Shown piece by piece: positions 4,390-44,827 of a stretch of 64,000 nt of DNA. Under the pieces are notes generated by a model. That model searched no databases. It was given only the letters and a program-made list of their open reading frames with translations, and was not told the origin of the DNA. The DNA is from Saururus chinensis (Eukaryota; Streptophyta; Magnoliopsida; Piperales; Saururaceae). The position numbers and the translations under genes were made by a program. The stretch is from the NCBI GenBank assembly GCA_035235625.1, contig CP141140.1, forward strand, positions 186,001 to 250,000. Direction: 5' to 3'. Numbering within the stretch: the first letter of the stretch is position 1; every line of letters starts with the position of its first letter.

Positions 4390-6399
4390 TAGATAGGCGT
4401 ACAAAATGTATAAAAATCACGCATATCAACAAACACCGTGGCAACCCATGAGAAATGCTGAGTCAGCTCATTATGATTTAGCGTAAACACGGAACTTAAT
4501 TCGTCAAAACCCTCAGGTCTCAAATTCACAATGCTCACATATTAGTTTTGCTTATAATTCATGCTTAAATTAAGTAAGTTATGTGGTACAATTATGCCAT
4601 AAAAACTCTCAAACATATAGTGCTCCACTAATCAAACTTAAGTTGAGCCTGTTCCAAAAGCCTAGTTCGTTAGGGCGGCAGACTTTACTTAAACTCTTCC
4701 AACTCACAACATAACTCATCGTCCACCAAAATCTTACATATTCATACAATATCCACCATCCACCTTATGGACAAAACATCTTAATCAAAAGTTATTAAAT
4801 TGAGCTCCTTAGAGCCAACCCTAGTTATCACCCTCTTACTTATACTATACTTATTATGCTTACTTTTTACTTTATAATATGTATGTTATGCTTGTACAAT
4901 TATGCAACACTCTTACTGTCTGACAATCCCTCAACATATGCTCCAATCCAAACCACACCAATCTACTCCAATCCTCTCCTGTCAAACTTACATCTATTGT
5001 CTTTCATCATACGCTTACATATCCACATACAACTCCATACCAAACCCTCTGTCAACTCTTACTATTCATCGCTCATACTTCTTCCCACATACACATATAC
5101 ATATCCATCGTACAAGCATATAGCCATCATATATACGTATGTTCATCACACATATGTATAACATACACATACTTCCATATATTGCTTACCAATATACTCA
5201 CTAGCCATCATTGGCACATACATAATCCACATACATAGCTCACCAACATACTCGCTAGCCATCACTAGCACATACATATTCCACTAGTCATCACTAGCAC
5301 ACACATATTCTACATACATCATCCATACAGCTCACATGCATGTCATATGCATTTCAACATGGCATAATTTATCCTTTTACATCATGCTAATGGATCATGA
5401 TTTAACATCCAATCATCAAATCTCAATCATCATAGCATGCTTCTACACATTCAAAGTATACTATCATGAAATTACGAGTTCAAGCTCCCCTACGTCATAA
5501 TCAATGATGTTTGATGGAGCATATGACCATGGTAGCATCAGTGGCATTGGCGGCCAAAAATATTGCCAAGCTGAGAGAACTTCTGTCTCAAGGGTTAAGG
5601 AAGCGCCAGAATCAATCACGGCCAAATGGGGGTGACACAGATCATGTAACGCCCGAGATTTTTCATACATTTTCCTTAAAATTCACAATTTTTTTTGCAA
5701 TATAACGACTGTACATCGGGAAAAATGACAAATACATAACCTATGAAAGCAGTTCAAAATTTAAAACATAACACATCAGTTTCTCCCATCCAAATTGTTA
5801 CTCATTCGATCAAACATAGTACGGCCAAAACAAACATCATTAGGCACTACTCAAAAATAAACGTATGAATAAATTGCTATGATCATAGACTTTAAATACA
5901 AATCTCTCCCAGGCATCCCCGAGTGCAAGTCCCATGACAGTCCACAATCTGATCCAAACTAAAAGTCCAGAATACATACACATTTTAATTCTCATCTCAC
6001 CCAATACTTTAGATCGTGGCACAAATAATGCTCATAGTGAGTCAAGTATATACCTGAGTCCAAGGGAATCAATCCACCATGGAAACAAGCATCCATCTCT
6101 AGGAGCTCCCCGACACAAACCTGCAAAAGCCTCCCTAATAATGGGGCTAAAAAATAGGGTAATGAGTATTTTCATACTTAGTAGGAAAATACCTAGTAGG
6201 GGAGTTCTAAACAGTGAACTTAGTAAATCCATACATAGATACATTCATCAACTCAAACATGAACAAACATGCATATCATAATCATGCTCATACGCATACA
6301 ATCACGCATATCATCATGCCAAAATCATACCATCGAATTAAACTTACACAAACACCCTTATTCAGGGTCTTACAAACTTACTCATACCATCGTATACTT

Positions 6400-6720: not shown

Positions 6721-7079
6721 AGCTCATTACAACTAATAATCTCCAGCATCGAAATGGAAAAGAATGTCACTGAGGCATCACCTTAACCTCTAAGGAGTGA
6801 CTAGATGCCATAGACTTTTCCGAAGGCAGGGCACACGAATTCTCATGGGGCACAAGATCAAATAGGTAAGGCCAGGTCCATGATACTACTTACCTGAACG
6901 CGCAAACATAAACACCCACACATAAGGGGTCATATATTTTCCTACCATAATGGGTCTTATAGTGCCATAGAATTGCCCACCAATATGGGTCTTATAGTGC
7001 CAGTGCCACTCTTGGGCAGAATCATACAATGCCACTATTGGGTAGAAACATGCAATGCCACTCTTGGGCGGAATCATAC

Positions 7080-8794
7080 TGTAACGCTCCTCGTATTTTC
7101 GAATAAAAGAAAACAATTTTTGAAAACGTAACAAAATTTAATTACAATTGCCAAGGATCACCGTGTACTAAAACAGTAATTACAACATACTTTGTATTAT
7201 ACAAAGATTGTCCAAAATTAGGCATCACGTGCCTTTGTACATTGGTCAATACAATAATTTACATAAATACAAAAACAGTAATACAAAACTTGTAATTTAA
7301 GGAAACCCTTCGTCGACTCCTTCAGAATTGAGTGAAACACCTGCAGAGTCTGAGGGTGGGTGAGTAAATTTATACTCAGTAGGTCGAATTAAGTTCTAAG
7401 AATATGCTTCGTGCACATGCCATTTTTTTTTTCTTTTTTTTTTGGAAATCCTTCGGAAAACCTGAAAACACGATCACAGAACGTCGCGATACCAGACGAC
7501 TTACACCCGCGCCCATGGGGCGACGCGAGACTGAAAGGAAGGGATTTACCCATGACATCCCAATCCTGTGCGCGCCAGATGCCAAATTTGGCGGTATCCA
7601 AAATCATAATAATTCTTAGCTCCGAAGAACCGAGAACTATCCAGACGGCACGATTGCCCAAAACTCGGAGAGATTTTCGAAAGGAGGAGATGATTTTGAA
7701 GTCAGAGCTTTTGTTTTCATAAAATAATAGAAAAACTTTTAGTAAGACTTTAGCGAGTCAAAATCTCGGCATACGATTAGAATTTAAAACTACCTACCTA
7801 TAACACGTGCGAAATCTCCTCGTAGCGTAAAGAGAGTCCCGCCTTAATATATCAGCCTTCGAGCGAGAATTTTGGCAGAATAACCACTCCAACGCGTAGA
7901 ATGCCCTTGATTTAGTAGGGTAAGGCTTTGGAACGGGTTAAAAAGGTTTAGGAATGGCCCAGAAACAAGAAAAGATAAAAAAAGAAGATTAGGGAAGGGG
8001 CACGTTTTTCGAGGTCTTAGAGGGGTCGTCTCGAGAAAGTAACGCTTCCGATGCGTAGAGCACCCTTGAATTAGTAGGAAACGGGTCTTGAAACGTGAAA
8101 ATCGGACTTAAAACGGGTCGGGAATGGTGAAAACAGTGAAGGGGGCTGAAAATCGGATGTGGGTGAAGAAGTGGCCGGAAAGGGTATAAATAGGCGGTGG
8201 AGGGAATATTCCGGTGGGCGCCGCCGCGGAACAGGCGGGCGCCCACCGGCGCCGCCACAAACCGGCCGGCGCCCACCGGCGCCGGCGCGAAACTATGTTC
8301 GCGCGCGTGACGAACGCGCGTTCGTCACCGCGAACGCGCGGTTCGTCGCGCGCGTTCGACGCGCGCGCGGCAACGCGCGTTCGGTGCGCGCCGCGCGGCA
8401 CACGCCGCGCGTTGCGCTGCGCCGAGCCGCGCCGCGCTGCGCCGAGTCGCGCCGCGCCGAAAACATAAAATATTTTTAATTAAAAAAAAAAAAATCCAAA
8501 AATTCCAAAAATCGTAACTTCCTATCCCGAACTCCGATTTGCGCGTTCTTGGTACCGTTGAGTTCGTATTCACGAGCCCTACGATACAAGACTATTTAAG
8601 AACCAATCCACTTAAATTTCGAAAGTGGGTCCCGCCGGTCGACCACGTTCCCCGAGGTCGTAACTTTTGCTCCCGACCTCTGATCTTCGCGTTTTAAGAC
8701 TCATTACGCTCGTCTTCATGAGCTCTAACTAAAACTTAAGAAAATTATAAACAAAATATGTAAGAAGATCGTGTTAGAAATTAGGGTCATTACA
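7080..8794 (-). repeat. 3' LTR of element B
   Basis: On the plus strand it begins 'tgtaacgctcctcg' and ends 'gggtcattaca'. It matches 14087-15817 nearly base for base outside short homopolymer and GC-block length differences. It carries a CpG-dense block at about 8215-8460. The best TATA-like word (8185-8192) reads TATAAATA on the plus strand, that is, antisense to the element. Confidence 0.9.
8215..8460. other. CpG-dense block in LTR of B
   Basis: This is a run of about 245 bases dominated by gcgcg, cgaacgcgcg and gccgcgccg words, with many short palindromes such as 'gaacgcgcgttc'. The same block occurs at 15215-15484 in the 5' LTR with small length differences. It stands out sharply from the AT-rich surroundings. 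Confidence 0.8.
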
Positions 8795-8798
8795 ATCT

Positions 8799-8810
8799 AC
8801 CCCCCTTAAA
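8799..8810 (-). promoter_or_regulatory. Polypurine tract of element B
   Basis: On the minus strand this reads AAGGGGGGTAGA immediately before the 3' LTR, the usual place for the plus-strand primer of reverse transcription. The same tract is found in the related element at 35521-35532. Confidence 0.75.
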
Positions 8811-8841
8811 GAAATTTCGTCCTCGAAATTTGAATTATCCA

Positions 8842-11800
8842 CTAAATGAATAACTCAGGGTACTTCTTTTGCATTTCGTTCTCCAGCTCCCAAGTAGCTT
8901 CTTCCGAGGAATGATATTGCCATAGCACTTTGACTAAGGGGATCCTTTTGGTCCTCAAGATTTGTTCCTTGTGATCCAGAATTTTAAGTGGCTTTTCTTC
9001 GAATGATAGGTCGGGCTGGAGAGTAATTAAACTCTGATCAAGAACATGAGAGGAGTCTTGGACGTATTTCCTAAGCATAGACACGTGAAATACGTTGTGG
9101 ACATTGCTGAGTTGTGGAGGCAAGGCTAATCTGTAAGCCACAGCTCCTATTTTGTCTAAAATTTCAAACGGTCCTACAAAGCGAGGACTTAGTTTGCCTT
9201 TAATTCCAAATCTCATGACTCCTCGGGTTGGCGAAACTTTTAGTAATACATGATCTCCCACGCTAAAGTTGATATCCTTCCGTCTTTGATCTGCATAGCT
9301 CTTTTGACGACTATGGGATGCCATTAGACGATGCTTAACAAGTTTCACCTTATCTGCACACTGTTGCGAAGTTCAGACTTAATCAATTTTCGTTCGCCCA
9401 CTTCATTCCAACACGTCGGTGATCGACAAGGTCGTCCGTATAATGCCTCATAAGGTGCCATACCTATACTGCTATGGTAGCTGTTGTTGTAGGCAAACTC
9501 GACCAATGGTAAATGTTTGTCCCAGTTACCCTTCCAATCCATGGTGCAAGCGCGCAACATATCCTCCAAAGTTTGGATAGTTCTTTCTGATTGACCATCC
9601 GTCTGTGGGTGGAAAGCAGTGCTGAACTTGAGAGTTGTACCCAATTCTTCTTGAAATCCTTGCCAAAATTTGGAGGTAAATCGACTATCCCGATCCGAGA
9701 TGATCGATAGTGGTATCCCATGCCGACTCACAATTTCCTTCACGTACAATTTTGCCAAAGAACTTAAAGATTGCTTCTTGCTTAATGGCAGAAAGTGTGC
9801 ACTCTTTGTGAGCCGATCCACGATCACCCAAATGGATTCATGGCCTTGTGAAGTTCTGGGTAGTGCTGAGACGAAATCCATAGTAATGTGTTCCCACTTC
9901 CACTCGGGGATTTCAATCGTTTGCAGGTACCCTGAAGGTTTTTGGTGTTCGGCTTTAATTTGCTGACAAGTTAAGCATCTCGAAATATATTCTCCTATAT
10001 CCTTCTTCATCCCGTTCCACCAAAAACTTCTCTTTAAATCTTGATACATCTTCGTTCCTCCTGGGTGGATGGTATATCGAGAACGATGTGCTTCATGTAA
10101 TAGGTCTTCCCTTAGCTCCGGAATTTCGGGTATTACCAACCGTCCTCGAAATCGAATACCTCCATCAGAGCCTTGGGTAAAGTCAGGTCTTCCGAGCAAA
10201 GTTTGCATTAATTCGTTACCTTTTTGACCTTCAAGAATACGCTCGACTAGTACTGATTTTACTTTTAGGGTGGCAATGAAAGATTTCTTGTTTCCAGCTT
10301 GTAGCTCGGGTCGTAAACTTATAGTTTCTTCCAATAATTTCCATTCTTTAACAAGCATGGAAGTTAATCCTCCGGATTTGCGACTTAAAGCATCAGCCAC
10401 CACGTTGGCTTTTCCGGGATGGTACTTGATGGAAAAGTCATAATCCTTAAGATATTCGATCCACCGTCTTTGCCTCATATTAAGATCACTTTGGGAAAAG
10501 ATGTATTTTAAACTTTGGTGATCGGTGAAAACTTCAAACATCTCGCCGTATAGATAATGTCTCCAAATTTTTAAAGCAAAAACTACCGCTGCTAACTCCA
10601 AATCATGAGCAGGGTAGTTACCTTCATGTTTCTTTAATTGTCGTGAAGCGTATGCTATCACTTTTCCGTCTTGCATTAATACGCATCCTAATCCTCTTTT
10701 AGAAGCATCGCTGTACACGACAAAACCTCCACTGCCAGTTGGCAATGCCAGAACGGGTGCAGTTGTTAATTTCTCCTTTAGCTCTTGGAAACTTCGTTCA
10801 CAAGTTTCGTCCCAAACAAATTTAACTCCTTTCCTTGTTAATTTTGTCAGGGGTAGGGCAATGCTTGAAAATCCATGGATGAATCTTCGGTAATAACCCG
10901 CAAGGCCTAAGAAGCTCCGAATTTCCGTTACTGTTTTTGGCCTTTCCCATTTGATGACGGCTTCAATCTTGGTTGGGTCCACCGATACTCCGTTCTTTGA
11001 AACGACGTGTCCTAAGAACACCACTTGTTCCATCCAGAATTCACACTTGCTAAACTTGGCGTAAAGCTTATGATCCCTTAGTGTTTGCAGAACAACTTGT
11101 AAATGCACTCGGTGATCTTCTAAACTACTAGAGTAGATGAGAATGTCATCGACGAATACGATTACAAACTTGTCTAAAAAGGGCCGAAAAATTCTATTCA
11201 TGAGATCCATGAAAGCGGCCGGAGCATTTGTTAAACCAAATGGCATCACTAAAAACTCATAGTGGCCATACCGGGTACGGAAAGCTGTCTTAGAGATATC
11301 CTCATCTCGTATCCTGAGCTGATGATAACCTGACCGTAGATCTATTTTGGAGAAAACTTTAGCCGTCTGCAATTGATCGAATAGGTCATCTATACGAGGC
11401 AAGGGGTACTTGTTCTTTACAGTGTTGGCGTTGAGAAGTCGGTAGTCAATGCACAACCTTAACGACCCGTCTTTCTTTCTCACAAATAAGACCGGTGCTC
11501 CCCAAGGTGAGACACTGGGTCGTATGAATCCTTTCTCAAGCAATTCCTGCAATTGACTTTTTAACTCTTTTAATTCCGCAGGAGCCATGCGGTAAGGTGC
11601 TTTAGAGATAGGGCTTGCTCCTGGCATCAACTCGATAGTGAAATCTATCTCTCTTTTTGGTGGCAGACCAGAGAGATCATCAGGAAAAACATCAGAGAAA
11701 TCTTGTACTACGTCAATGCTCTTCAAATTAAACGAAGTAGTCTCATTAGTTTCCACACTAGCAAGATAAGCCCAACATCCTTTACTTAAAAGCCGATGAG

Positions 11801-13280
11801 CTTTGACTGCTGAGATGACACATGGTTTAGAATGATCCTTAAGCCCATAAAAAGTGAAACTCCTTTCACCTCGTTCAAAGATCACCTTCTTCTGTTTACA
11901 GTCCACTAATGCCCCGTTATTGGCTAACCAATCCATACCTAATATGACGTCAAAGTCGGTCATATTTAGGAGAATAAGGTCGGCCTCCCACTGGCATTTC
12001 TCTAAGGAAATAGGTACCCTTCGAAGAAATTTACGGGCTAGAAACATTTTTCCCATTGGGGTGGACACTTCTAAGACATATCCTAAATTTAAAATCGGAT
12101 AGCCGAGACTTGAAGCAAAATCGAACGATATGAAAGAATGCGTCGACCCTGGATCTATCAAAATTTTTGCTAATTTATCCAAGACCAGAAGTGTACCTTG
12201 AATGACTGCAGTCGACGCTTGAGCTTCCTCAGCAGTAATTGCGAAGACCCGCCCTTGAGCCCTTGGTTTCTGCTCCGATTTTGATTCTTCTTGTATTTTC
12301 CTCTTTGGGCAGTCTTTAATCTGATGGCCTTGTTCACCACAGAAAAAGCATTTTCTTTCGGTACGATAACACGATCCAAGTGGATGAATTTTACTGCATT
12401 GTGGACATTTTTCTAGCTTCCTTTCTCCCCTTGGCTGTGAAGGTGATTCTGAGGGTTTTTGAAACTTGCGATTATTCTGATTGTTAAACGTCAATCTCCT
12501 TTTCCTTTCATCGGGTCGGAAACCATTATTTTGTCCTCGGTCCTTACGTCCGACCACAAATTCCATATAATCTTGTTCTAGGATGGAGGCTAGTTCAACC
12601 GCTTTGGCAAAAGTCGTGGGTTGATGGCCAATAATTCTTCCTCTTAATCCATTGTTTAGGCCCCTCACGAACTTCCGAGCTTTCTTTAATTCCGTCGTAC
12701 AATAGTCTGGAGCGAAACGTTGTAATTGTACGAATTTATTCTCGTACTGAGTCACCATTAACCCTCCTTGTTGTAGATCTAAAAACTCCTTTTCTTTTCT
12801 TTCTTGGACGTGAGGAGGAAAATATTTATCGTATAAAACTTCCTTAAATTCTTCCCACTTAATATGATCACCAACCGTGAAGAAATTCCTTTCTGCTGTA
12901 GGCCACCAGAAAGCAGCTTCGCCAGTCATAGAGAAAGTGGCTAGCGGCACCTTACGATCATCGGGAATCTTCATTGCTTTAAAGATCCGTTCAACTTCAA
13001 ATGTCCACCTTTCAGCGGCCTCAGGGCCGTCTTCTCCCGTAAATGCTGGCGCAAGCTTCTTAAAACGTTCCAACAGATTATCCTTTTCACTGTGGATAAA
13101 ATCTCCCGAACTAGTTGAATGATTGGAATGATTCGATTGGAAACCTTGAGTCATTCTTTGCATTAATAAATCCACGAAATGCATCATAGGATCTCCCGTT
13201 GTCAAAGTGACCGGCGTAGTAACATCGGGTGGAGTTGAGCTACTTGCCGGTTGAGCATCGTTACCACTAACGTTCGTCAT
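8842..13280 (-). CDS. gag-pol coding region of element B
   Basis: This region encodes the gypsy Gag-Pol polyprotein. Gag occupies about residues 1-345 from the start at 13280 and contains a retrotransposon-gag domain (near residues 90-210) and a CCHC knuckle at residues 311-324 ([14 protein letters not shown]). The protease has DPGSTHS near residue 377. Reverse transcriptase spans about 550-760 with active site FVDD at 709-712. RNase H has DAS at 858-860 and TDH at 919-921. Integrase has the zinc-binding CLTC at 1102-1105 and a D,D-35-E core with acidic residues near 1135, 1196 and 1232. A chromodomain-like C terminus ([16 protein letters not shown]) closes the region. That order and the chromodomain type point to the Tekay/Del lineage. 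The element looks almost whole, with about one break. Confidence 0.9.
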
Positions 13281-13467
13281 CTAAACATGGATTAGTAACA
13301 TCAAGATCTATAGAAACAAACTTACTTTATAACAACCTTGAAGTGTCATTACATCACTCAAAAGTTACGTTAGCTATTTACATAATAAAACTATTCTTAG
13401 TACACATCAAAATTATTCCCACGGAACTATTTACTCGAAATTTTTACAGGCTTTCTTCTCTAAGACT

Positions 13468-13983
13468 TTAGAGAGGAAAGGTTCTAGCTTTAGGGCATTC
13501 AAAGAAAAAGTGGGTTAAGAGTCCACAAAACATGCACCGCTCGGGCATTCCATGCCTTCCGGTTTCTTTCCCTTTGAGGAGACGTTGGACGCCTGGCTCT
13601 TCCACCCATTCGACTTCAGGTGGGGGCAGTTCGTTCAGGTCAAAATCCATTTTATACTCAAGGTTATCCTCGTTAGAATTTTCACTTTCTTCCACTTCCA
13701 AGGAGGGATCTTCTTCAGACTCTTCTCCTGGAGTAGGCGAGTCCGGGATAATTATTATTTCGTTCACGTCATTATTTGTGGGTGAACCAGGGGTGTAAAA
13801 GATCTCAGAATCTTCTGAGTCTGAAATTTCGATGGGTGTCTTATCTTCATTGTACATACTCTTGCTACAGCTTCCTTTCATTGGAAGTGGCAATTTGCGA
13901 GCAGTAGAATGATAAAGATTGCTTGACAGATATGTCTTATGCCTGAGCATCGACATCTGTTTAAGCTTCACATAAAAATTCAT
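13468..13983 (-). CDS. Accessory 171-aa ORF of element B, acidic protein with zinc knuckle
   Basis: This intact frame lies between the 5' LTR and gag, in the sense direction, and I know no named family for it. The predicted protein has a basic N terminus (residues 1-45) and then a strongly acidic, Ser/Pro-rich stretch. In that stretch are two hydrophobic-acidic motifs resembling SUMO-interacting motifs (PIEISDSEDSE, 50-60; EIIIIPDSP, 75-83). The motif DLNELP at 115-120 fits the plant EAR pattern DLNxxP, known in other proteins to bind TOPLESS corepressors. A C-terminal CCHC knuckle has C150, C153, H158 and C163 (CX2CX4HX4C). What is seen is motifs only. Binding to SUMO, TOPLESS or RNA is inference. 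It could be an unusual accessory nucleocapsid-like protein or a captured host fragment. The related element F has no space for it. Confidence 0.6.
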   Translation of the reverse strand: MNFYVKLKQMSMLRHKTYLSSNLYHSTARKLPLPMKGSCSKSMYNEDKTPIEISDSEDSEIFYTPGSPTNNDVNEIIIIPDSPTPGEESEEDPSLEVEESENSNEDNLEYKMDFDLNELPPPEVEWVEEPGVQRLLKGKETGRHGMPERCMFCGLLTHFFFECPKARTFPL

Positions 13984-14070
13984 TAAGAAATTTCAAATAA
14001 GAAAACATACGATAAAATATAAATAATTGTATTGACTGATTTAATTACTTTTTAGTAGACAGTAGAACCT

Positions 14071-14084
14071 TGGCTCCGATACCA
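14071..14084 (-). promoter_or_regulatory. Primer binding site of element B (tRNA-iMet)
   Basis: The minus strand reads TGGTATCGGAGCCA directly inside the 5' LTR. It matches the 3' end complement of initiator methionine tRNA (TGGTATCAGAGC) except for one base, the standard primer of plant gypsy and copia elements. Confidence 0.8.
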
Positions 14085-14086
14085 AC

Positions 14087-15817
14087 TGTAACGCTCCTCG
14101 TATTTTCGAATAAAAGAAAACAATTTTTGAAAACGTAACAAAATTTAATTACAATTGCCAAGGATCACCGTGTACTAAAACAGTAATTACAACATACTTT
14201 GTATTATACAAAGATTGTCCAAAATTAGGCATCACGTGCCTTTGTACATTGGTCAATACAATAATTTACATAAATACAAAAACAGTAATACAAAACTTGT
14301 AATTTAAGGAAACCCTTCGTCGACTCCTTCGAATTGAGTGAAACACCTGCAGAGTCTGAGGGTGGGTGAGTAAATTTATACTCAGTAGGTCGAATTAAGT
14401 TCTAAGAATATGCTTCGTGCACATGCCATTTTTTTTTTCTTTTTTGGAAATCCTTCGGAAAACCTGAAAACACGATCACAGAACGTCGCGATACCAGACG
14501 ACTTACACCCGCGCCCATGGGGCGACGCGAGACTGAAAGGAAGGGATTTACCCATGACATCCCAATCCTGTGCGCGCCAGATGCCAAATTTGGCGGTATC
14601 CAAAATCATAATAATTCTTAGCTCCGAAGAACCGAGAACTATCCAGACGGCACGATTGCCCAAAACTCGGAGAGATTTTCGAAAGGAGGAGATGATTTTG
14701 AAGTCAGAGCTTTTGTTTTCATAAAATAACAGAAAAACTTTTAGTAAGACTTTAGCGAGTCAAAATCTCGGCATACGATTAGAATTTAAAACTACCTACC
14801 TATAACACGTGCGAAATCTCCTCGTAGCGTAAAGAGAGTCCCGCCTTAATATATCAGCCTTCGAGCGAGAATTTTGGCAGAATAACCACTCCAACGCGTA
14901 GAATGCCCTTGATTTAGTAGGGTAAGGCTTTGGAACGGGTTAAAAAGGTTTAGGAATGGCCCAGAAACAGTAAAAGATAAAAAAGAAGATTAGGGAAGGG
15001 GCACGTTTTTCGAGGTCTTAGAGGGGTCGTATCGAGAAAGTAACGCTTCCGATGCGTAGAGCACCCTTGAATTAGTAGGAAACGGGTCTTGAAACGTGAA
15101 AATCGGACTTAAAACGGGTCGGGAATGGTGAAAACAGTGAAGGGGGCTGAAAATCGGATGTGGGTGAAGAAGTGGCCGGAAAGGGTATAAATAGGCGGTG
15201 GAGGGGAATATTCCGGTGGGCGCCGCCGCCGGAACAGGCGGGCGCCCACCGGCGCCGCCACAAAAACCGGCCGGCCCCCCCTGGCGCCGGCGAAACTATG
15301 TTCGCGCGTGACGAACGCGCGTTTGTCACGCGCGCGGTGACGAACGCGCGTTCGTCACCGCGAACGCGCGGTTCGTCGCGCGTTCGACGCGCGCGACGTG
15401 CGCGTTCAGTGCGCGCCGCGCGGCACACGCCACGCGTTGCGCTGCGCCGAGCCGCGCCGCGCTGCGCCGAGTTGCGCCGCGCCGAAAACATAAAATATTT
15501 TTAATTAAAAAAAAAAATCCAAAAATTCCAAAAATTGTAACTTCCTATCCCGAACTCCGATTTGCGCGTTCTTGGTACCGTTGAGTTCGTATTCACGAGC
15601 CCTACGATACAAGACTATTTAAGAACCAATCCACTTAAATTTCGAAAGTGGGTCCCGCCGGTCGACCACGTTCCCCGAGGTCGTAACTTTTGCTCCCGAC
15701 CTCTGATCTTCGCGTTTTAAGACTCATTACGCTCGTCTTCATGAGCTCTAACTAAAACTTAAGAAAATTATAAACAAAATATGTAAGAAGATCGTGTTAG
15801 AAATTAGGGTCATTACA
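14087..15817 (-). repeat. 5' LTR of element B
   Basis: It has the same ends as the 3' LTR ('tgtaacgctcc' and 'gggtcattaca' on the plus strand). By eye the pair differs at only a handful of sites outside the homopolymer runs and the CpG-dense block, where lengths vary. It should drive transcription toward lower coordinates. Confidence 0.9.
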
Positions 15818-15844
15818 CATACAATGTTACTCTTGGGCAGAAAT

Positions 15845-16030: not shown

Positions 16031-19000
16031 CAACATCCCGCAAGATAAACACAATGGCAAGACATGAGAAATGTTCAGCTGACTCATTATCGACTAGCCC
16101 AAACATAAAACTTAATCCGTCAAAACCCTTAGGTCTCAAACTCACAACGCTATCATTAGCTTTACTTATAATTCAAGTTTGAATTAAGTAAGTTTTGTGG
16201 TACAATTATGCCATGCAAACTTTCAAACATACTATGCCACACTGATCAAACTGAAGTTGAACCTGATCTAAAATCCTAGTTCATCAGGGCAACATACTTC
16301 ACTTAACCCGTCCATCTTACAACATAACTCATTGTACACAAAATCCTTAAGTATTCATATAATCTCCGCCATCTACCTTATGGCCAAAACATCTTACTTG
16401 GAAGTCCTTAAACTGTGCTCCTCATAGCCAAACCCAGTTATACCCTCTTACTTATGCCTCACTTATTATGCTTATTTTTCACTTCATAATCTGTACGTTA
16501 TGCTTGTACAATTATGCACACTCTTACTGTCTAACAATCCCCAAACATACAATCCAACCCAAACCGATCCATTCTAATCCTCACCCATCAGTCTTATATC
16601 CTTTGTCTTCTATCATACACTTACACATCCACAACAAATCCATACCAAACACTGTCACTTCTTACTGTCCATCGCCTATACCTCTGCCCACATGCACATA
16701 CACATATCCATAGCATAGGCAAATAGCCATCATATATACGTATGTCTATCACACATAAGTATAACATACACATACTTTCATACCTAACTTACCAACATAC
16801 TCGCTAGCTAGCCATCACTAGCACACACTCAATCCACATACGAAGCTTACAAACATACACACTAGCCATCACTAGCACATACTCTCAAACATACTTATAG
16901 CCAACATGCATGTCATATGCATTTCAACATGGCATAATTCATCCTCTTACATCATGCAAATGGATCATAATCTAATATCCATAACATTCAATCATATAGT
17001 CCTAGCATGTTGTTACTCATTCAAAGCATGCTATCATGAAATTATGAGTTCAAAGCACCCCTACCTCGTAATCATGATGTTTGATGGTGAGCACACAATG
17101 GTGGTGGCATCGGGGCGGAGTTGGTTGTCAAAAGCATTGCCAATTTAAGAGAGTTGTTGGTCTGAGGTTTTTAGGAAGTGCTGGAAACAATCATGGCCAA
17201 ACGAGGTCTCAGAAGTCAATGCGGCAAAATCCGCGATCCATGGTGGTACACTAGGGGCACCCAGGAAAAAGGTTGTGCCAACATAAGTGGCGGTGCGACT
17301 AGATGTCGAGGGTGTACTCACTGAAGGTCGGCCGGCGGCTGAGAAGTACTTGGCCGGCCGTAAGACGTCGAAATTGACCGTGGACAGCCCCCAAAGGCAT
17401 CGATTTTGCGTCATCAAGGGCCCCAATAGGGCAGAGGGCATGGGGCGACGCTCGAGGACAAAGGAGAGGTGGTGCAGAACTCTGATGTCAACTTCATTCC
17501 ATGGCAGAACCAACCGAATGTCAAGCGACACAAATACAACGCCTAAACCTAAAAGCACACGCGTGGTCATAAGCACACACGGCCAAAAATTGCCACTCTA
17601 GGGGGAGATGAGTTAGACGGTGGAGTCCCAAGGCCCACAAAGGGGCAACAGAGCTAGGGCCAGGAAGTGGTAGCCGATCGAAGAGGCGACATCGCTAATC
17701 ACCAATCACAACCAACACATTTAGTGTGGGCAGCTATGCATCTCACATGGTAAAGGGCAAAGGCAAGTAGCCCATTTTGAGCGGAGGTATAATCGGGCCA
17801 AGTGGGGCTGACCCTCACTATTGCCGAGCCGGGGTAGAGCCCATGATGGCCAAATGGCCCATAGCTCACCGATGGCAATGACACGAGACACCCAAAATAT
17901 CTAATCGGGCAGAGCAAGACAATAGGGGCGAAGCAGGGTCGAAAACAGAACCCCCTACCGACACTGGGTCGAGGTAGGCTGGACGGAGTCCGTCCAATGG
18001 CCAGATGATGATTGAAAACACACCAACGTCTAAAAAACATCACGGATAGTGAAATGAAAATATAACCAAAACCCGACCAAAGTACTGGTAGCTCACAGTG
18101 GAGTGAAGAAAGTATGGCAGCGGCTCTAGCCAGTGCCTATGGGTTCCTAGCAGCCAAACAAACATAAGTTTAATTGAGGGCGGCTGCAAACAACATTAAA
18201 ATTGCACCCCAACGGCTCAAAAACGAGATTTGATAGAGAGAAAAACTGAAGAAAAGTTCGGTACCTCGTAAAGGAGCGAAGAGGCCATGGTGGCGGTCAT
18301 AGCCAGTACCTACGGACTCGTGGCAATGAGGCAAAGAGGATCCCGACAAGAATAGGCAAAATTCGATGACATAGGAGGGAGAAGAAGCGACCAAAATCTC
18401 ACTCGGGTTCTCACAAAAGTCACTAGACTTGAAAAATGTTACTGGACGTCCTGGAATCCAATCGACGGATTTTATATATAATCTTTTTAATTTTCCATGT
18501 ACGTCACTAACACGTGTTAAGCTCTCGGTTACGCATTATACCTCCAAAATTTGCGTCGTAAGCGCGCAGCCCCACACCCAACTCTATGGGTAAAATATGG
18601 CGTAAATACACAAATACAAATACGCTGAAGCGTTATATTTTTCCACCAAAAATGACCAAAAAAATAGTAGAAAAATCACAAAAAATCATAAAAAAATCAG
18701 GGGCATTACAGATCAACGCAACAAAATCTGCAATCATGGTGGCACATTATGGGAGCTAGGAGAAAAGTCATGCCAACAGAAATGACAAGTGTAACCAAAA
18801 GTTGATATGGACTAACTGAAGGTCAACTGACAACTAAGAAATACTTGACTGGCTGTAAGATATCAAATCGACCACAAATAGCACCAACCAACGACATTTT
18901 TGAATCATCGAGGGCCCAAAAAGGGCAGAGGGTGTGGGGCAACACTTGAGGATAGAGGAGAGGTGGACTATGGTGGACAAATCCAGATGATGACAGAGTC

Positions 19001-23105: not shown

Positions 23106-26100
23106 CTAAGTTAATGATTCCAGTAGAATCGGAACTCCAAATTCAGGTTGGAGGAGGATGTTGTTTACTGGGGAATGTTTGTAATGTGGGGAGAGAGAGA
23201 AGGAGAACTTCTGTAAGATGATGGCCAAAATTATCTTGGCCTCCAACATGGCGAAGTTTTGTCCAATACAAACCCGGGGCCCTATGGAGAAGGCAATGAA
23301 GGCGTTGGGGTGCTTGGCAGCCCTTGACAACCCGTCTGCAAATCTCAGGGGATTAAACTCGTTGGCATCATCGCCCCAGTACTTAATGTTTCTGTGGATA
23401 ATAGGAAAGGGAAATGTCACGACAGTGTTCTTCGGGATCATCAAATGTCCTAGCCTCATGTCGGATATGGCTTTCCTCTCGGTGAAAATCACAGGGCTGT
23501 AGAGTCTGAGTATCTCGTACAAAAACATAGTTACCTGCATCATATATATGTACATAACTTGTTAACAACCTCTCGGCCAACAAATGCTTGCGCCAACTCA
23601 GAGCTTACTTATAAGGAAAAGTTTGTGACTAGCTAGATAAGCCTGGCTAAAAAGGTAAGCCGCAACTCTAGCTAGACATCATCTTCTCATAAGTTGTGAG
23701 GCCTCACACCGAATATGGCGTGAGTCGCTAATCACCTGCTCAGGGCCGGCTGGGAGTCGACGCTTCTATTCATTTTCCCAGTAATAATTGGCAATTTAGG
23801 CCGTTTTTTTAGATTAGCTGGGTGCATGCTCCCATCAAAGGAGTGGCCAATCAATGCCAACCACATGGGAAAATGTATTATCAGAGTTTTCCTATGTGGC
23901 TAGGATTGATTGGTCACTCCCACCAATTGTGGTGGGGACCCTTCCAGCAGATCTAAATCCATAATCGATAAATTAGCGGAGGTTGACTGACCAATTTAAG
24001 TTTTGCTAATTTGTCGGCATCTGGAATCTCAGTGGCTACGCAAATGGAGCGAACTTCTTCCCTCAGCCTCCTCTGCCACTCGTGGTTAGAGCCCAGATAG
24101 AACATGGCCCAGCTCAAAAGATTAGAAGTGGTCTCATGTCCAGCAAAGAAGAAGGTCTTGCACTCGTCGATTATCTCATCCACAGTCAAGCCCGAACCCC
24201 CTTGCCTTTTGGATTCTTCAACAGAAGCGCTCAGCATTAAGCCCAGTAGATCATCACCGTAACCTTGAAACGTCTCTCCATCCTTCACCATCATCATCTT
24301 CTGCTTCGCTTCTATAATTGACTTCAGTTTGTTCCTCAGTTTTTTTTCGAGCTTCCACATGCGCCTGTTCCACTTGGTTGGGAGGTGCCTGTAAAAGTGG
24401 CGCAAAGGCTGCATATCTTTTTTCTTCTGGAATCCGTTTGGAAATGGACTTAGAAAACATATATTTTTCTCTTTTTTTAAAAAAATTAATAGTTTTATTT
24501 AATTTTTTAAAATTATTTAAAATTAAATTTTTTTTAAAATAAAATAGGAGGGAGTATGAAACAAGTTCCAGGTTCATACATATCCATGTATCTGTTCCCT
24601 ATTCTCAAGGTTTGAAGAAATTGTTTTAAGTCCAAATGTAGCCCGACTCTATTTAAGGTAGAGACCGGGCCTAAAATATTTTAGCCCTAACTTGTATTTT
24701 TGCAAGCCAGGTTGACATGTCAGTTTTTAAAATTTCACCCCCACTTATATAGAGCTGATAAGGGGTTAAAATATAAAATTATATTCCCTTTATCCTAATT
24801 TAATAATTTTATTTGATAAAAAAATTTATTCTATATTAATAACTCTATTTTATTAAATTTATATAATTGAGTACTTAAAAAAAAAGTAACATAAACTTAT
24901 TCATCCTTCTCTTATATATAGGTTTTAAGACTCAATAAAAATTATTATTTTTTAAATAAAGTTATTAATATAAGATGGAGATAATGTACTCTATTTCTTA
25001 ACATCTTAAGCCAATTAGAAAATGATTATCTAACACTTTATTGATCTTAATTGAGGATCATTAAGGGTAATTGTATAATTTTTTTAAAAAAAGAAGGGCT
25101 ATCTAGCGTTGTAGCTTCAGTGTTAGATAGTGAGTTGGAGCCTCATGACCCTTAGATCACAGCCCCTAGCTATGATATAATGGCCATAAGACTCTCGCTC
25201 TACCCAACGCTAAAGCTATTTCCATTTTAAAAAAAAAATTACTACTCACTCGCTGCCTGGTATGTAAATGTCTGAAACGGAGGCTATGACCATTCGGTGA
25301 AGCTCCATCTCCACCTCGAAGACTTCCCTTCCTTCCTTGTAGCTAGTTCCGAAGGATGTGTGCGCAATGATATCGCCAGTGAGCTGCATGAATTCTCGAT
25401 GCATGTCCAATTCCTTCCTCGGATTCCTTCGTATTTCCTCCTCCCACATGTTAGCTGTCGACAAGGTGCAAGCTCCCATTTGTTTCAACATTCCCTGTCG
25501 TTGTACGATGTTTGAAAAGTGGTTATGAGCGATATTATCCCTTTTTCAACTTATGTTGTTTCGATTTTCAACAAGGAAAGGGTTTTCTTTTTTGCTGTTT
25601 TGTCTTATAAAACTTTATTCAAGCACTCCAGCTATGGGAAGTGGGCTGCGCCTGCGAGAGCTACTGTTCCCTTTTTCTTTTCATTTTATAAATGTTCGCC
25701 TTTGTAATGTGTACCTATTGCATAGCGGCTCTACATTGGCATTAGATTAAAAAGGGTCAACATGCATGCCATATGCCCCTTCAAAATCATTCCATAGGGA
25801 AATTCCTCTCATGGGAGGACGGGTGGTGATAGTGAGGGTATAATAAGCCTGATAAGGAGAAAATAGTGGTTGTGTTAGTCTGAAATGATGTCACTAGCTA
25901 GGACCAGCCACAAAAGTTTTGGCCCATTTCTCTAATAAGGGGCTCACTCAATCTGCCCGCTTATAACTTATTATTAAGTCTTCTAATTCCGAAAATATTA
26001 TGAAATTAGATACGGGTTTCAATACTCCCTCTATATTGTATTAATTGTCTGAATTTGAAAATTTATTTATCTTATATTAATTATTTATTTTCTATTATCT

Positions 26101-27020
26101 TAAATAGAATAAAAAAGTAGATAAATTGCCTTTCATAAGTATCATATTTTCTCGACAACTAATATGGGACAGAGGGATTAGTTGTTTTAAAAAATAGAAG
26201 ATTATATAATAGTTTTAAAGAACATAATACTATAATATGTATAAAATATTTCAAATTATACTACATTATGAACTTATAGAAAGTAAAATTGTATTCGTTG
26301 TAGACATTGCAAAAAAAAAAAAGTGTTACATTGTTATAGAAAAACCGTACAAATCGTCACCTTCAGCTTGTCAATATGGAAGGCTGGATTTACAGCTCTT
26401 CGGTGTCTGGCCCAGTCTGGCCCACTAACGGAGAGCAGACCCTTGCCGAGCAGAGCATCCACGGAAGGGGTTTGCTCGATCACGGTGTAGTAACCAAATT
26501 TGGTAGATAGCACTTCCTTGATCATGGCTGGGTCTACTATGCACAACCTGGGCTCTGTTCCGAACCAGAACAAGAAGGTTTCTCCTGACAAAGCAGCACA
26601 CAGCAGGTTCAGGGTGTTCCACGGATCAAATATGAAAAAAACGAATTATATGTAGTCCAAGTACATAAAAAAACTCTTGTAATTTGTAGGTGAGGAGAAG
26701 AAAAGAGACTGAAGAAGGGCTTGAAGGAGAAGGAATAGAGGCTCACCATATTGTTGAGACCATTTGTGATAGTAGGGCAACACCTTGGGGGTGACATCGT
26801 GGGAGGCCGGGTCCATGGGTGTCTGCTTGGCCTCAATTTCCAGCCGTTTGACCTCCTGCAAAGATCCCGTGAGTATGCTATAAGGAGGGCCTCTGATCCC
26901 TTGTTTGGCGAAGTGCCTGACGATGGAATGAGGTCTCCATACGAGATCCATAAGGATTTTCCCAACGACAAACGCTAGCACGCTCGAAGCAACTGGGAAA
27001 AGAAGATCAAGATATCCCAT
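23106..27020 (-). CDS. Cytochrome P450, CYP709-like (CYP72 clan), five exons
   Basis: A complete spliced gene: exons 27020-26747, 26584-26361, 25494-25250, 24388-23992 and 23534-23106, all introns GT-AG, giving 522 residues. It has an N-terminal membrane anchor (about 5-25) and proline hinge GIRGPPY (41-47). The I-helix oxygen-binding motif AGHETTS is at 330-336 and ExxR at 387-390. The FNPLRF meander is at 440-445 and the heme loop FSIGPRVCIG is at 462-471 with ligand Cys469. Phrases such as the FLFW-G-P segment after exon 1 and GYGDDLLG match CYP709B members. By family it is an ER-anchored heme mono-oxygenase; known CYP709s hydroxylate fatty acids or act in ABA/salt responses, but the substrate here is unknown. 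An in-frame ATG eight codons upstream (27044) is an alternative start. Introns 2 and 3 carry MITEs. No damage was seen. Confidence 0.88.
24784..24986. mobile_element. Stowaway-like MITE in P450 intron 3
   Basis: It starts 'ttccctttatcctaatttaa' after TA at 24782-24783 and ends 'ttattaatataagatggag...' before TA at 24987-24988. The ends are imperfect inverted repeats of the CTCCCTCCGTCC type, the interior is AT-rich, and the size is about 200 bp. A second fragment ending 'ggagggagtatg' sits nearby at about 24480-24558. Confidence 0.5.
26025..26178. mobile_element. Stowaway-like MITE in P450 intron 2
   Basis: It begins 'ctccctctatattgtattaa' and ends 'atatgggacagagggat'. The ends are long inverted repeats, flanked by the target duplication TA (26023-26024 and 26179-26180). 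The length of 154 bp, AT-rich interior and TA target match Stowaway (Tc1/mariner-derived) MITEs, which often sit in plant introns. Confidence 0.7.
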
Positions 27021-27044
27021 GTCTGTTTGTTCTCTGAGAAACAC

Positions 27045-29371
27045 TCACACGCACGCAGACAGACGGATGCAGAAGATGGATCAAACGGAGGAGATGACTT
27101 GCATCTAACTACTACAGGAATGTCTACAATGATCGATGAAAGAGAAGAATTATTAGTCAAGAGTGTAACTCTAAAAGAGACGCGCCTCTTTGATTGGAAG
27201 TTTATGGCTGTAGTATTTATTAGAGTTTGGATTAACTTGACGCGGAAGTCGGGGGCAAACAAATCATGCTACACGCCCATCATACACGAGATGCCCGTGA
27301 CAAGACCCGCTGCACATGCCGGTCAATCGCTTCTATATTGTAATGAGAAGTTAGGGTCTTTATTCTATTATTAAATATTTTGTTTGAATTGAACTCAATT
27401 TAACTGTGGTGACTTCGCCTATTTTGACTCCTAATTACTAGTTTTAAAATTTAAATTTTTATTATTTTTTAATTATTATCTTTAATATTGATCTAATCAT
27501 CAAAAAAATATGTCCTATTTAAAAAATTCAAGATAACATATCTTGTGAGGTTTTCAAATACGAGTGCAACAATAAAATTGTGTTGCATATTCGAGTTAAA
27601 AAAAAAAGTCATGTTAGTTTAAAATTTTTAAAAATAGTTTTAAAGTTTCATCCAAATTTATTTTAATTTTTTTTATTACCGACCATAATATTGACTTTAT
27701 GCTAAATCGATTAAATTAATTCTAAAAAATTTACTTCATTTTCTAAAAAATTCTAAAGCCAAACAACCCTCTCATATATATAATTAATTAATAGCATTTA
27801 TATTTTTTAGCTCCACTAATCAACACTATTCAGATGATAAAGTTAGGACTTCACGCATGAACTTGGACGTCACAAAAATAATTTTCTTTTTATATAATCT
27901 TAATAAATTATTGCATGTGTTCAACCGGTACTAGCCACCGAAACATGTTACAGAAATGAAGTGTAACACACTTAGATTTTGTTAGGGATTAATGTGGAAT
28001 CGTTAAAGAGTTACTTGGGTATTTAGATGGAATTATTAGGAGTTACGGATTCATGTGGAATCGTTAAAGAGTTACTTGGGTATTTAGAAGGAATTATTAG
28101 GAGTTAGGGATTAATAGGAAAAGTGAAAAGTAGTGGTCAGCCGACAGACGTTGACATGTCAAACTATTGGGGTGGCCCTCTAAGATAGTGTGTGACCGGA
28201 GCTTCCTGTACTTGGTGGACTTCCTTCAGGGTATAAATATGATGAGATGGGGATAGAAAATAAAACCCTAAACTATATGGAAGGTGACAAGAGCTTCTGA
28301 ATATCAGATTTGAATGATAAAATGAGGAAGAGAATGAAGTGCAAAACAAACTTCGAGGAACTGATTTCGAATTGGAAAGCCACTGAAATTGAAGAAGGAA
28401 TCTCGTCTATCAATAACTTTTTATTATGCATGAATGTTAAGCAAGATAATGTGTAAAAAGTATGACTCTAATAGATTTCTTTTACTGGAAAATGGATTAA
28501 AACTTGAGATGCGAAGTTTCTGATGTGATGTGATGATTGTTGGACCATGGCATGGGCTCAGGCCCGGTTTGGTCCAATGTATCATGGTTTGGGTAAACTG
28601 GTATGGGTCACGAGGTCTAAGGGTGGTGGGGGCGGATGCGCCAACACCACATGTTCCCTCATTACACATAATTCGAATGAGACTCACACATGTCACACAC
28701 GTATACTAGACATACATTTAAGTGTGTATTTACCATTGTGGGGCCTAGTTGCGTGAATTAGGTGTCAAGGGTGGGACCCGTGTTTAGTGAGAGGTCGACC
28801 CTGTCGCGGGCTTGACCATGTGCAGGGGTCCAGGCCTCTGCGGGCTGTGTGACAGAGCCCACGCCTGTTGTGTTTGAACCTCTATTAGAAACTGGAAGAA
28901 TTCTAGCTTGCAAGCCTAATTTAATCAAAGCCCAAATAAGGCTCATTCTATATTTGGAAAGTAAGGAGATTGATTAGAGGGAGAGAATAAGAGAGAATAT
29001 TCTCTTTTATTCCCAATTAAATGGGATGCCCCCCTTATTGTGGATCTAAGAATTCCAAATGAAGGCTCCCCTCTCTCTCTCTGGGCCGCCCCCTCTCTTC
29101 TTGGTGTGTTTTGCTTCTCCATTGGGAGAAGCTGCTAGCCGCCCCTTCTCTCCCCTATCCAAGGCATTGTAGGTGGGCTGAAAGGAAGGAGAGGACTCTC
29201 CTTCATCGCTGATTCGCTTTGAGGATTGATTGGGCTAAGATCTTGCAACGTTTTTTTCATCCAAGTGGGGTTTGAGAGGGATCAACACATAGGTAACTCT
29301 CTCTCATCCTTAACTTGTTTTGAACTATCCATTGGCGTGCTAGATCTGTGTGAGGAGGGTGTGCTAGGGCT
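27045..29371. other. Upstream flank of P450 and unassigned spacer
   Basis: The first ~300 bases should hold the P450 promoter. The minus-strand AATAAATAC near 27222-27230 is a weak TATA-like candidate. 27400-27900 is AT-rich. At 27981-28121 a 61-bp unit is tandemly repeated. 28500-29371 is less AT-rich, has a CT run near 29071, and reads like transcribed sequence or an old LTR, but no open protein family is recognisable. It continues at 32887 across the E1 insertion. Confidence 0.35.
27981..28121. repeat. 61-bp tandem repeat, ~2.3 copies
   Basis: The unit starting 'gttagggattaatgtggaat' at 27981 recurs at 28042 and, in part, at 28103. The first two copies differ by only a few bases. Confidence 0.75.
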
Positions 29372-30009
29372 GGTTTTGTCACGCCCCGGCCATGCCCGAC
29401 CCGAGCCGAACCCGGTCCAAGGGCCGGTCAAGCGCGCGGGGGCGACAAAGTAAAATTGAGAAACGATTCTAGCGGAAGACTTAATCCCTAACCACGGGCG
29501 ATTAACAGCAACACGGAGTGCGCACAATCCTTTGAGCAAGAGTAAATAAAAGGGAAGAAAAAGGTGTTGCTTATCACAAAGTAAACAACAATCTCAAACC
29601 CACAAACTTAGTTAAGTAAAGCCCACACCAGCTCAAAATAAGTCATAAGCAAACATAACTGTAACATGTGACATAAAACCACAACAAGAACCCTACACAA
29701 AGGTTCGAACATAAAGCATGAAAGAAACGATGATAAGTCACGCAACGATCTCCATCATCACACCCAAGCTACCTCTGACCTTTCCTCAAAAAGGCAATCC
29801 TGTCCGTCTGCGTGTCGTACCACGCAGCCCCAAATCAAAACACAAAAGAGGGGTGAGTTTTAACACTCAGCAATGGTTTTAATATCACTGTCAATGTAGA
29901 AAATACGATAGCTTAGAAATGAGATCGTTTCAGATCAAAGATTTACATGGTGCATTACTTTCTGATCACACATTCATATCACTTAACACTGCATCAAAAT
30001 GCATAATTC

Positions 30010-30395
30010 AACCTGCATGGATGTATCTCTAGCATACATATTCCCACATGCATTCACATCATAACCAATCCCGCATGGATGTATCTCTAGCATACATATT
30101 CCACATGCATAACATCATAACCAATCCCGCATGGATGTATCTCTAACATACATATTCCACATGCATAACATCAAAATCAACATGCATGGATGTATCTCTA
30201 ACATACATATTCCACATGCATAACATCAACATCAACATGCATGGATGTATCTCTAACATACATATTCCACATGCATAACATCAAAATCAACATGCATGGA
30301 TGTATGTCTAACATACATATTCCACATGCATAACATCAACATCAACATGCATGGATGTATCTCTAACATACATATTCCCACATGCATAATGTCAT
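30010..30395. repeat. 55-58-bp minisatellite in E1, seven copies
   Basis: The word 'atggatgtatctctaacata' starts near 30017, 30075, 30131, 30186, 30241, 30296 and 30351, with 'ttccacatgcataacatca' between. The same array has four copies in E2 (about 45460-45690), five in E3 (49600-49875) and five in E4 (63315-63575). Confidence 0.85.
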
Positions 30396-32450: not shown

Positions 32451-32460
32451 CTTTTATAGT
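32451..32460 (-). promoter_or_regulatory. TATA box of E-family LTR (E1)
   Basis: The minus strand reads ACTATAAAAG, about 420 bases into the LTR. The same ten bases occur at 47709-47718 (E2), 51947-51956 (E3) and, on the plus strand, 61259-61268 (E4). Confidence 0.6.
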
Positions 32461-32886
32461 AAGGGTTGGGGTAGGCAAAGGTAAGTTTTGGGGTGTAAAT
32501 ATGAAAAGTAGGCTAAAAGTGGTTATTTTGCAAATTTAAGCACGAATTAAGCCTAATAAAATTCTAAAAATTTTTGTGTGACCTTAAGTATATGTCTAGG
32601 TTCATTTGACATAAAAATAAAATTTTCGACCGTGGGGCCCACAGGGGTCCCGCCAAAACCCTAATTTTTGGGAAAATAGTGAAAATTCCGAAAAATCTCA
32701 AAAATTCACATTTGGTTTAAAATCACTTAAAACCACTAATATTGAAGTTAATTTTGGTTAAAACCATCACAAACTCTATTTATTTACGAAATCACCGAAT
32801 AAGATCAGAAAACACGTAAATTGCACGATAACCCATAATTAAATAAAAATCAAAACCGGTTTAAAGATTAGGGTCCTTACAGGTTT

Positions 32887-44822: not shown

Positions 44823-44827
44823 TATTA

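What the first reader, a model, noticed from the sequence alone, without database searches (positions are those of the whole stretch)
13468..13983. Accessory ORF in a young Tekay-like element: acidic protein with SIM-like, EAR-like and CCHC motifs
Seen: an intact 171-aa sense frame between 5' LTR and gag, with PIEISDSEDSE and EIIIIPDSP, DLNELP (residues 115-120) and a C-terminal CX2CX4HX4C knuckle. Known: hydrophobic-plus-acidic stretches can bind SUMO, DLNxxP motifs recruit TOPLESS corepressors, and knuckles bind nucleic acid; some plant gypsy lineages (Ogre/Tat) carry ORFs before gag. Inference: a retrotransposon accessory protein that may engage host SUMO or corepressor machinery at chromatin. 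Tekay elements are usually described with gag-pol only.
Basis: partly seen in the sequence, partly recalled or inferred. Interest (0 to 1): 0.72.

Follow-up and report, generated by a model that had tools for sequence, protein, structure and literature searches.

The report
Retrotransposon accessory protein with repressor-binding motif
A family of plant jumping genes carries an extra small protein, kept intact by natural selection, whose best-preserved stretch contains the six-letter tag that a fungal effector uses to grab a plant gene-silencing protein, so it may be a mobile element's tool for handling its host's repression machinery.

Summary
The ORF is real but lies on the minus strand (13983-13468). 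It sits between the 5' LTR and gag of a minus-strand chromodomain (Tekay-like) LTR retrotransposon, 7080-15817. It is a family trait: of the first 84 gag matches in this genome, 83 have all or part of it upstream. 39 of 40 chosen copies are open from Met10, the likely start, giving a 162-aa protein. Change is frame-specific: dN/dS 0.37 (bootstrap 0.27-0.51) against 0.81-0.84 in the shifted sense frames. DLNELP is the exact EAR hexapeptide of the TOPLESS-binding fungal effector Jsi1. Related Tekay-like elements, one in this window, lack the ORF. Tekay 5' accessory ORFs are already in print, so this is a new variant of a known kind. Best reading: a mostly disordered adaptor that binds element nucleic acid through its knuckle and engages TOPLESS/SUMO corepressor machinery. 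Constraint is shown; partners and function are inferred.

The parts
14087..15817 (-). 5' LTR (TG...CA); 5-bp target-site duplication CATAC at 15818-15822
   Evidence: 96.5% identical to the 3' LTR; ends read from the sequence
14072..14084 (-). primer binding site TGGTATCGGAGCC (initiator-Met type; tRNA identity recalled)
13468..13956 (-). accessory ORF1 from the conserved start Met10 to the stop, 162 aa (the 171-aa frame starts at 13983)
13804..13836 (-). SIM-like stretch 1, PIEISDSEDSE (residues 50-60)
   Evidence: pN/pS 0.25; I51 and I53 in 39 of 39 open copies
13735..13761 (-). SIM-like stretch 2, EIIIIPDSP (residues 75-83)
   Evidence: pN/pS 0.24; I77 in 39 of 39, P80 D81 S82 P83 each in 38 of 39
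13597..13647 (-). DFDLNELPPPEVEWVEE (residues 113-129) with EAR-type DLNELP at 13624-13641
   Evidence: lowest pN/pS of the 8 segments, 0.15; DLNxxP in 38 of 39 copies
13495..13536 (-). CCHC zinc knuckle CMFCGLLTHFFFEC
   Evidence: pattern in 38 of 39 copies; weak match to LIN28 knuckles, E 0.033
13281..13467 (-). spacer between ORF1 and gag, ending ...TTACTAATCCATGTTTAG directly before the gag ATG (3'-splice-site-like)
9345..13280 (-). gag-pol frame (gag, CCHC, protease, RT, RNase H, integrase), 1311 aa, cut short by a frameshift in this copy
8842..9348 (-). end of pol in another frame: integrase C-terminal part and chromodomain
7080..8794 (-). 3' LTR; target-site duplication CATAC at 7075-7079; purine-rich tract just inside, about 8795-8815

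Best explanation
ORF1 is a genuine, selectively maintained accessory gene of one Tekay-like retrotransposon family (shown). It encodes a 162-aa acidic, probably largely disordered adaptor (acidity shown; disorder only suggested by a low-confidence model). Inferred mechanism: the C-terminal CCHC knuckle binds the element's own RNA or DNA. The central DFDLNELPPPEVEWVEE segment docks on TOPLESS/TPR corepressors as a host-motif mimic, and the two nearby SIM-like stretches read SUMO, which is attached to TPL/TPR proteins. The protein would thereby capture or blunt SUMOylated TPL-HDAC repression, a decoy that favours the element's expression. How ORF1 and gag-pol are both expressed is unsettled; a conserved splice-acceptor-like TTTAG directly before the gag ATG suggests gag-pol is made from a message that skips ORF1. 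Estimated: constrained accessory protein 0.95; TPL binding by the DLN segment 0.45; SUMO binding 0.35; decoy/anti-silencing outcome 0.25. The single confidence given is for the adaptor reading (EAR and/or SIM engagement).
For: Family-wide presence: of the first 84 gag rows, 77 pair with an ORF1 match (recounted); the other 7 were fetched and 6 carry all or part of ORF1. With a query from Met10, 107 of the 150 printed rows show no stop in the matched stretch (151 matches, best of 548 candidates; my count). dN/dS over 9 clade representatives 0.37 (bootstrap 0.27-0.51) against 0.84 and 0.81 in the +1 and +2 frames. The pattern persists with transversions only (0.58 against 1.87 and 1.45), so it is not just cytosine deamination. 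The four motif segments had lower pN than randomly placed segments in all but 4 of 5000 draws. The DLN segment combines the lowest pN/pS (0.15) with the highest pS (0.37), so the constraint there is on protein, not on DNA. FDLNEL is invariant in 13 divergent copies. DLNELP is the listed motif of Jsi1, whose TPL binding is lost when DLNxxP is mutated (PMC8126959, passages). TPL and TPR1-4 are SUMO targets (PMC3443746, passages). ORF1 distances track gag distances (Mantel r 0.75, 36 copies, 0 of 2000 permutations).
Against: No expression, protein or binding data. Constraint extends past DLNxxP to EVEWVEE, which an EAR motif alone does not explain. In a review of characterised EAR repressors most DLN-type motifs lie in the C-terminal quarter (PMC9956375, passages); here it is at about two thirds of the protein. 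SIM patterns are near chance in this composition, and the strict pattern is lost in 7 of 39 copies. One open copy lacks the EAR proline (L029) and one lacks a zinc ligand (L047). The fixed-difference test shows only moderate constraint (N:S 13:8, 23:13, 21:12, neutral about 2.9) and no contrast with polymorphism; within clade C dN/dS is 0.55. One antisense register also gives a low value, 0.45. Gag is under stronger constraint (0.145 against 0.41 in the same 8 copies). The copies were chosen by ORF1 similarity, which lowers dN. No copy of one modelled spliced junction was found.
Confidence: 0.4

Rival explanations
1. ORF1 is an RNA-handling accessory protein, nucleocapsid-like or Rev-like: the CCHC knuckle binds the element's RNA for packaging, chaperoning or export of unspliced RNA, and the acidic and DLN parts bind element or export proteins rather than TPL/SUMO.
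For: The zinc knuckle is the least likely motif to arise by chance (2e-5) and is constrained (pN/pS 0.33). A nuclear protein encoded by a spliced C. elegans Cer1 mRNA is required for export of unspliced Cer1 RNA (review PMC12786077, passages). The TTTAG directly before the gag ATG and the 18 ATGs from the ORF1 start (counted) to gag fit regulated splicing.
Against: The DLN segment is more constrained than the knuckle. The protein is strongly acidic (net -17, pI 4.5), unusual for a nucleic-acid binder. No spliced copy was found for the one donor tried.
Confidence: 0.27
2. ORF1 is an integration-targeting or nuclear-localisation cofactor that uses TPL- or SUMO-marked chromatin as a tether, helping the chromodomain integrase choose sites.
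For: In sunflower the Tekay group with a 5' aORF inserts mostly in chromosome arms and near genes, while groups without it are centromere-biased (PMC11728184, passages). The related elements without ORF1 here would allow the same comparison.
Against: Insertion landscape was not compared here; the sunflower aORF protein is not shown to be related; the chromodomain can account for targeting alone.
Confidence: 0.15
3. ORF1 is a captured host-gene fragment or an older decaying gene with no present function; intact copies are merely young.
For: Many of the 150 scored matches are young, near-identical copies; LTR identities are 91.8-98.6% in the 15 of 20 fetched copies with a near-full LTR pair; older copies accumulate stops and frameshifts.
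Against: Frame-specific constraint between clades up to 20% apart in DNA; presence in 83 of the first 84 gag rows; length differences between the open clade representatives are whole codons.
Confidence: 0.06
4. The stretch is kept for a cis-acting RNA or DNA function (packaging, leader structure, promoter), and the frame is incidental.
For: The non-coding leader and spacer are about as conserved in DNA as ORF1 and gag (mean distance 0.085 and 0.093 against 0.107 and 0.093, 7 representatives).
Against: Within ORF1 the pairwise changes follow codon positions (639, 641, 953), and the most constrained protein segment has the highest synonymous change.
Confidence: 0.06

Closest known systems
Tekay 5' accessory ORFs (sunflower Tekay group 2; maize Tekay, sorghum Sb7, rice Retrosat-2) as described in PMC11728184
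   Same: Same place (between 5' LTR and gag), restricted to a sub-group of Tekay, present in nearly all copies of the group (500 of 523 there; 83 of the first 84 gag rows here), disordered or compositionally biased protein; no Pfam match for the sunflower protein or for this one.
   Different: The sunflower protein is 402 aa, proline-rich, with a predicted C-terminal NLS; no EAR, SIM or CCHC motif is mentioned in the section read. That paper reports no amino-acid similarity between the sunflower and grass aORFs.
Jsi1-type DLNxxP effectors of plant-pathogenic fungi (PMC8126959)
   Same: Identical hexapeptide DLNELP in a protein of a parasite-like agent; a host-motif mimic.
   Different: Secreted fungal proteins with no knuckle or SIM mentioned in the passages read; unrelated otherwise. 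Works-like comparison only.
Plant EAR-motif repressors (ERF, ZAT types)
   Same: DLNxxP motif.
   Different: No DNA-binding domain of those families (no Pfam match at cut-off); zinc knuckle and SIM-like stretches instead; motif not in the C-terminal quarter.
Gag nucleocapsid knuckle of the same element
   Same: Both are CX2CX4HX4C and share C-x-F-C-G and H-x4-C-P-K (read directly).
   Different: Alignment not significant (E 0.12); no gag domain found in ORF1.
ORF1-less Tekay-like element at 33836-41703 in the same window
   Same: Related gag-pol (58-82% in pieces), similar PBS and LTR stretches.
   Different: About 285-nt U-rich leader directly before gag; no ORF1.

Membership tests
Chromovirus, Tekay clade (Ty3/gypsy) | gag-PR-RT-RNaseH-INT order with C-terminal chromodomain | tested here: met
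   Retrotrans_gag, RVP_2, RVT_1, RNase H, Integrase_H2C2, rve, SH3_Tf2-1, Chromo (Chromo 22.6 bits, E 9.9e-5, just under Pfam's cut-off of 25.1)
Chromovirus, Tekay clade (Ty3/gypsy) | RT/INT placement with Tekay references in a phylogeny | not tested
   No reference elements held; the Tekay label is recalled from the chromodomain II-like end and PBS
LTR retrotransposon | paired LTRs, TSD, PBS, PPT | tested here: met
   LTRs 96.5% identical, TSD CATAC, PBS, purine tract
Plant 5' aORF (sense ORF between 5' LTR and gag, kept by most copies) | sense ORF upstream of gag in most copies of the family | tested here: met
   All or part of it in 83 of the first 84 gag rows
Plant 5' aORF (sense ORF between 5' LTR and gag, kept by most copies) | homology to a described 5' aORF protein | not testable with these tools
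   Sequences of published aORFs not held; no supplement look-ups allowed
EAR-motif (DLNxxP) protein | DLNxxP sequence, conserved | tested here: met
   38 of 39 open copies; pN/pS 0.15 for the segment
EAR-motif (DLNxxP) protein | binding to TPL/TPR or SAP18; transcriptional repression | not testable with these tools
   Needs binding and reporter assays
SUMO-interacting protein | hydrophobic core flanked by acidic/Ser residues, beyond chance | tested here: inconclusive
   Strict pattern (recalled definition) in 32 of 39 copies; chance 0.048 (strict) and 0.46 (core only), but both stretches constrained
CCHC zinc knuckle | CX2CX4HX4C kept | tested here: met
   38 of 39 copies; chance 2e-5; no Pfam match at cut-off
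Gag/nucleocapsid duplicate | significant similarity to gag of the same element | tested here: not met
   E 0.12 over 19 residues

The most novel reading that the evidence does not exclude
A plant LTR retrotransposon encodes a dedicated mimic that binds SUMOylated TOPLESS/TPR corepressors through an EAR hexapeptide plus two SIMs and carries them to, or away from, element nucleic acid. It would be a retroelement counterpart of pathogen effectors that hijack TPL, and an anti-silencing route distinct from the DNA-transposon proteins of the Vandal (VANC) kind.
Probability: 0.3. Interest if true: 0.85.

Novelty: new variant of a known kind. Interest (0 to 1): 0.57.

Why it matters
[quoted passage not shown] a review says the same for the antisense kind (PMC7264820). 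Here a high-copy family carries one with short motifs of known binding partners under measurable constraint, and related families without it exist in the same genome. That makes the question 'what is an aORF for?' directly testable with a few point mutants and a binding assay. If TPL binding holds, transposable elements would join fungi, oomycetes and bacteria among the agents that exploit this plant hub.

Tried and rejected
Pfam on ORF1 alone and on 13 divergent copies: nothing at cut-off; weak only: LIN28-type knuckle E 0.073 in 3 of 13, DUF7130 E 0.033 in 2, TBC1D23_C E 0.088 in 1. PDB sequence search: LIN28 knuckles at E 0.19 and 0.033. Single-sequence AlphaFold model: mean pLDDT 52.6, pTM 0.15, best block residues 111-120 at 78; too poor for a fold search, which I did not run. 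IMG/VR scan with the alignment: 201 pattern stretches, no relative. Splice-junction search: the pattern joining one leader donor to gag, 0 places; the unspliced form 162 places, 3 mismatches allowed; only one donor was tried. Leaky scanning to gag looks unlikely (18 ATGs from the ORF1 start to gag). Gag duplication as origin: not significant. Fixed-difference test: direction agrees with constraint, no contrast with polymorphism (p 0.48-1.0). Rfam and tRNA scans of the window: nothing. Host-gene origin could not be searched: candidate lists fill up with element copies, and no plant proteome is held. The species was not identified.

Not found in print, by these searches only: EAR/TOPLESS with retrotransposon (15 of 64 listed, 12 of 43), SUMO-interacting motif with LTR retrotransposon or knuckle (12 of 25, 12 of 12), the string DLNELP (2 of 2, by title on a fungal effector and on EAR repressors), aORF and Tekay searches (20 of 289, 20 of 121, 15 of 58, 15 of 47). 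Only listings were seen except for the papers cited. Two papers that hold all four terms (PMC7748000, PMC12646159) were not opened.

Full report
What is there. The window lies in a 516-Mb genome of 11 contigs. The finding sits in a minus-strand LTR retrotransposon at 7080-15817: LTRs 15817-14087 and 8794-7080 (96.5% identical), target-site duplication CATAC, a TGGTATCGGAGCC primer site, and gag, protease, RT, RNase H, integrase and chromodomain by Pfam (the chromodomain is just under Pfam's cut-off). With a recalled plant rate of 1.3e-8 per site per year, 3.5% LTR difference is about 1.4 million years. Pol is broken in this copy by a frameshift; three gag rows show a frame of 1479 aa or more. 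The 171-aa frame is on the minus strand; the same bases read forwards have stops.

The start. Many older copies show one stop when searched with the 171-aa protein. When the query begins at Met10, 43 of the 150 printed rows have a stop and 107 do not (my count; 151 matches, one not printed; best of 548 candidates; frameshifts and partial matches are not counted in this). Alignment shows a stop at codon 9 or a 1-nt deletion before it in several clades, with ATGTC kept. So the conserved protein is probably 162 aa. Of 40 fetched copies, 39 are open from Met10 to the stop; L043 is frameshifted and was dropped from codon counts. I chose 37 of these 40 because one search showed no stop, and 3 (L046-L048) with one stop, so 39 of 40 is not a population rate.

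Family trait. To avoid choosing by ORF1, I searched with gag residues 13-230 (best 150 of 3298 candidates). Of the first 84 rows, 77 have an ORF1 match at the expected distance, and I fetched the other 7: six have all or part of ORF1, one (L069) is rearranged. Further down, 4 of 4 fetched loci with gag identity 84-85% (L053-L056) carry it, and 3 of 4 others with 75-83% carry all or part (L065, L066, L068; L067 has none). The 8 fetched loci with 70-72% gag identity (L057-L064) have none. A related element in this very window, 33836-41703, has only a short U-rich leader. ORF1 thus looks like a sub-clade property, inherited with gag (Mantel r 0.75 over 36 copies).

Constraint. Nei-Gojobori dN/dS: within clade A 0.22 (190 pairs), within B 0.29, within C 0.55, between A and the others 0.27-0.32, B-C 0.40, one copy per clade 0.38 (9 copies); over 153 ungapped codons 0.37, bootstrap 0.27-0.51. 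The same DNA in the +1 and +2 frames gives 0.84 and 0.81; the antisense registers 0.77, 0.45 and 0.83. I read the 0.45 as cross-talk with the sense codon positions; I did not test that. Transversions alone give 0.58 in frame against 1.87 and 1.45. Fixed differences give N:S 13:8, 23:13 and 21:12 against about 2.9 expected, not different from polymorphism. Gag of the same representatives is tighter, 0.145 against 0.41 for ORF1 (8 copies). Copies found by protein similarity bias dN downward, most of all within clade A.

Motifs. Segment pN/pS over 9 representatives: N-terminus 0.43, PIEISDSEDSE 0.25, next linker 0.63, EIIIIPDSP 0.24, acidic run 0.79, DFDLNELPPPEVEWVEE 0.15, next linker 1.28, knuckle segment 0.33. 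F114 D115 L116 N117 are identical in 39 of 39 copies; C153, H158 and C163 in 39 and C150 in 38. Shuffling says CCHC and DLNxxP are unlikely by chance; the SIM patterns are not.

Mechanism. DLNxxP is one of the two defined EAR patterns (PMC6283911 passages; PMC9956375 passages). The fungal effector Jsi1 has exactly DLNELP, and changing the motif abolished TPL binding, which maps to the second WD40 domain (PMC8126959 passages). TPL and TPR1-4 are SUMO targets, and a fly SUMO-targeted ligase is said to antagonise the TPL homologue Groucho in a way that involves its SUMO chains (PMC3443746 passages, one cut short). A protein with an EAR motif next to two SIM-like stretches is therefore what a reader of SUMOylated TPL would look like; that is inference. 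The knuckle would link it to RNA or DNA. Whether the outcome is a decoy, a recruiter or a tether is open. For expression, the gag ATG is directly preceded by TTTAG, with TTACTAAT (TTATTAAT in some older copies) ending 10 nt before it; 162 places in the genome keep this region within 3 mismatches. 18 ATGs from the ORF1 start to gag make scanning to gag unlikely. Skipping ORF1 by splicing would solve this, but a search for reverse-transcribed spliced copies from one candidate donor found none, and the proposed donor is unproven.

Known or new. 5' aORFs in Tekay elements are known: in sunflower group 2, 500 of 523 elements have one, and grass Tekay elements have others without amino-acid similarity to the sunflower protein (PMC11728184, passages and section). 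PMC7264820 (first of three parts read) says aORFs lie upstream or downstream of gag-pol, those between pol and the 3' LTR being the most frequent. I found no report of an EAR motif or SIM in a retrotransposon aORF in the searches listed under Tried and rejected. The find is a new variant of a known kind with an unusually testable motif set.

Noticed in passing
window 33836-41703 (minus): Related Tekay-like element, LTRs 90.8% identical, pol in several frames, no ORF1, about 285-nt U-rich leader.
   Followed up: partly
window 29368-32890, 44819-48138, 48958-52385, 60840-64000: A repeat of about 3.3 kb in four copies (one inverted), mostly 86-94% identical, with internal repeats at spacings of 55-59 bp.
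   Followed up: no
window 23106-27044 (minus): Exons that read like a plant cytochrome P450 (stretch FSIGPRVCIGQNFA; motif recalled).
   Followed up: no
window 4431-5626 and 16047-17201: 77% identical stretches on either side of the element.
   Followed up: no
gag start of L058 and L063; window 13281-13290: The CATGTTTAG|ATG context of the gag start is shared with ORF1-less relatives, so the acceptor-like site may be older than ORF1.
   Followed up: partly
L045 (from base 760 on): The most divergent open ORF1 copy has a different sequence, GC-richer by eye, where the spacer and gag should be.
   Followed up: no
window 13281-14084: Non-coding leader and spacer are as conserved between clades as ORF1 and gag.
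   Followed up: no
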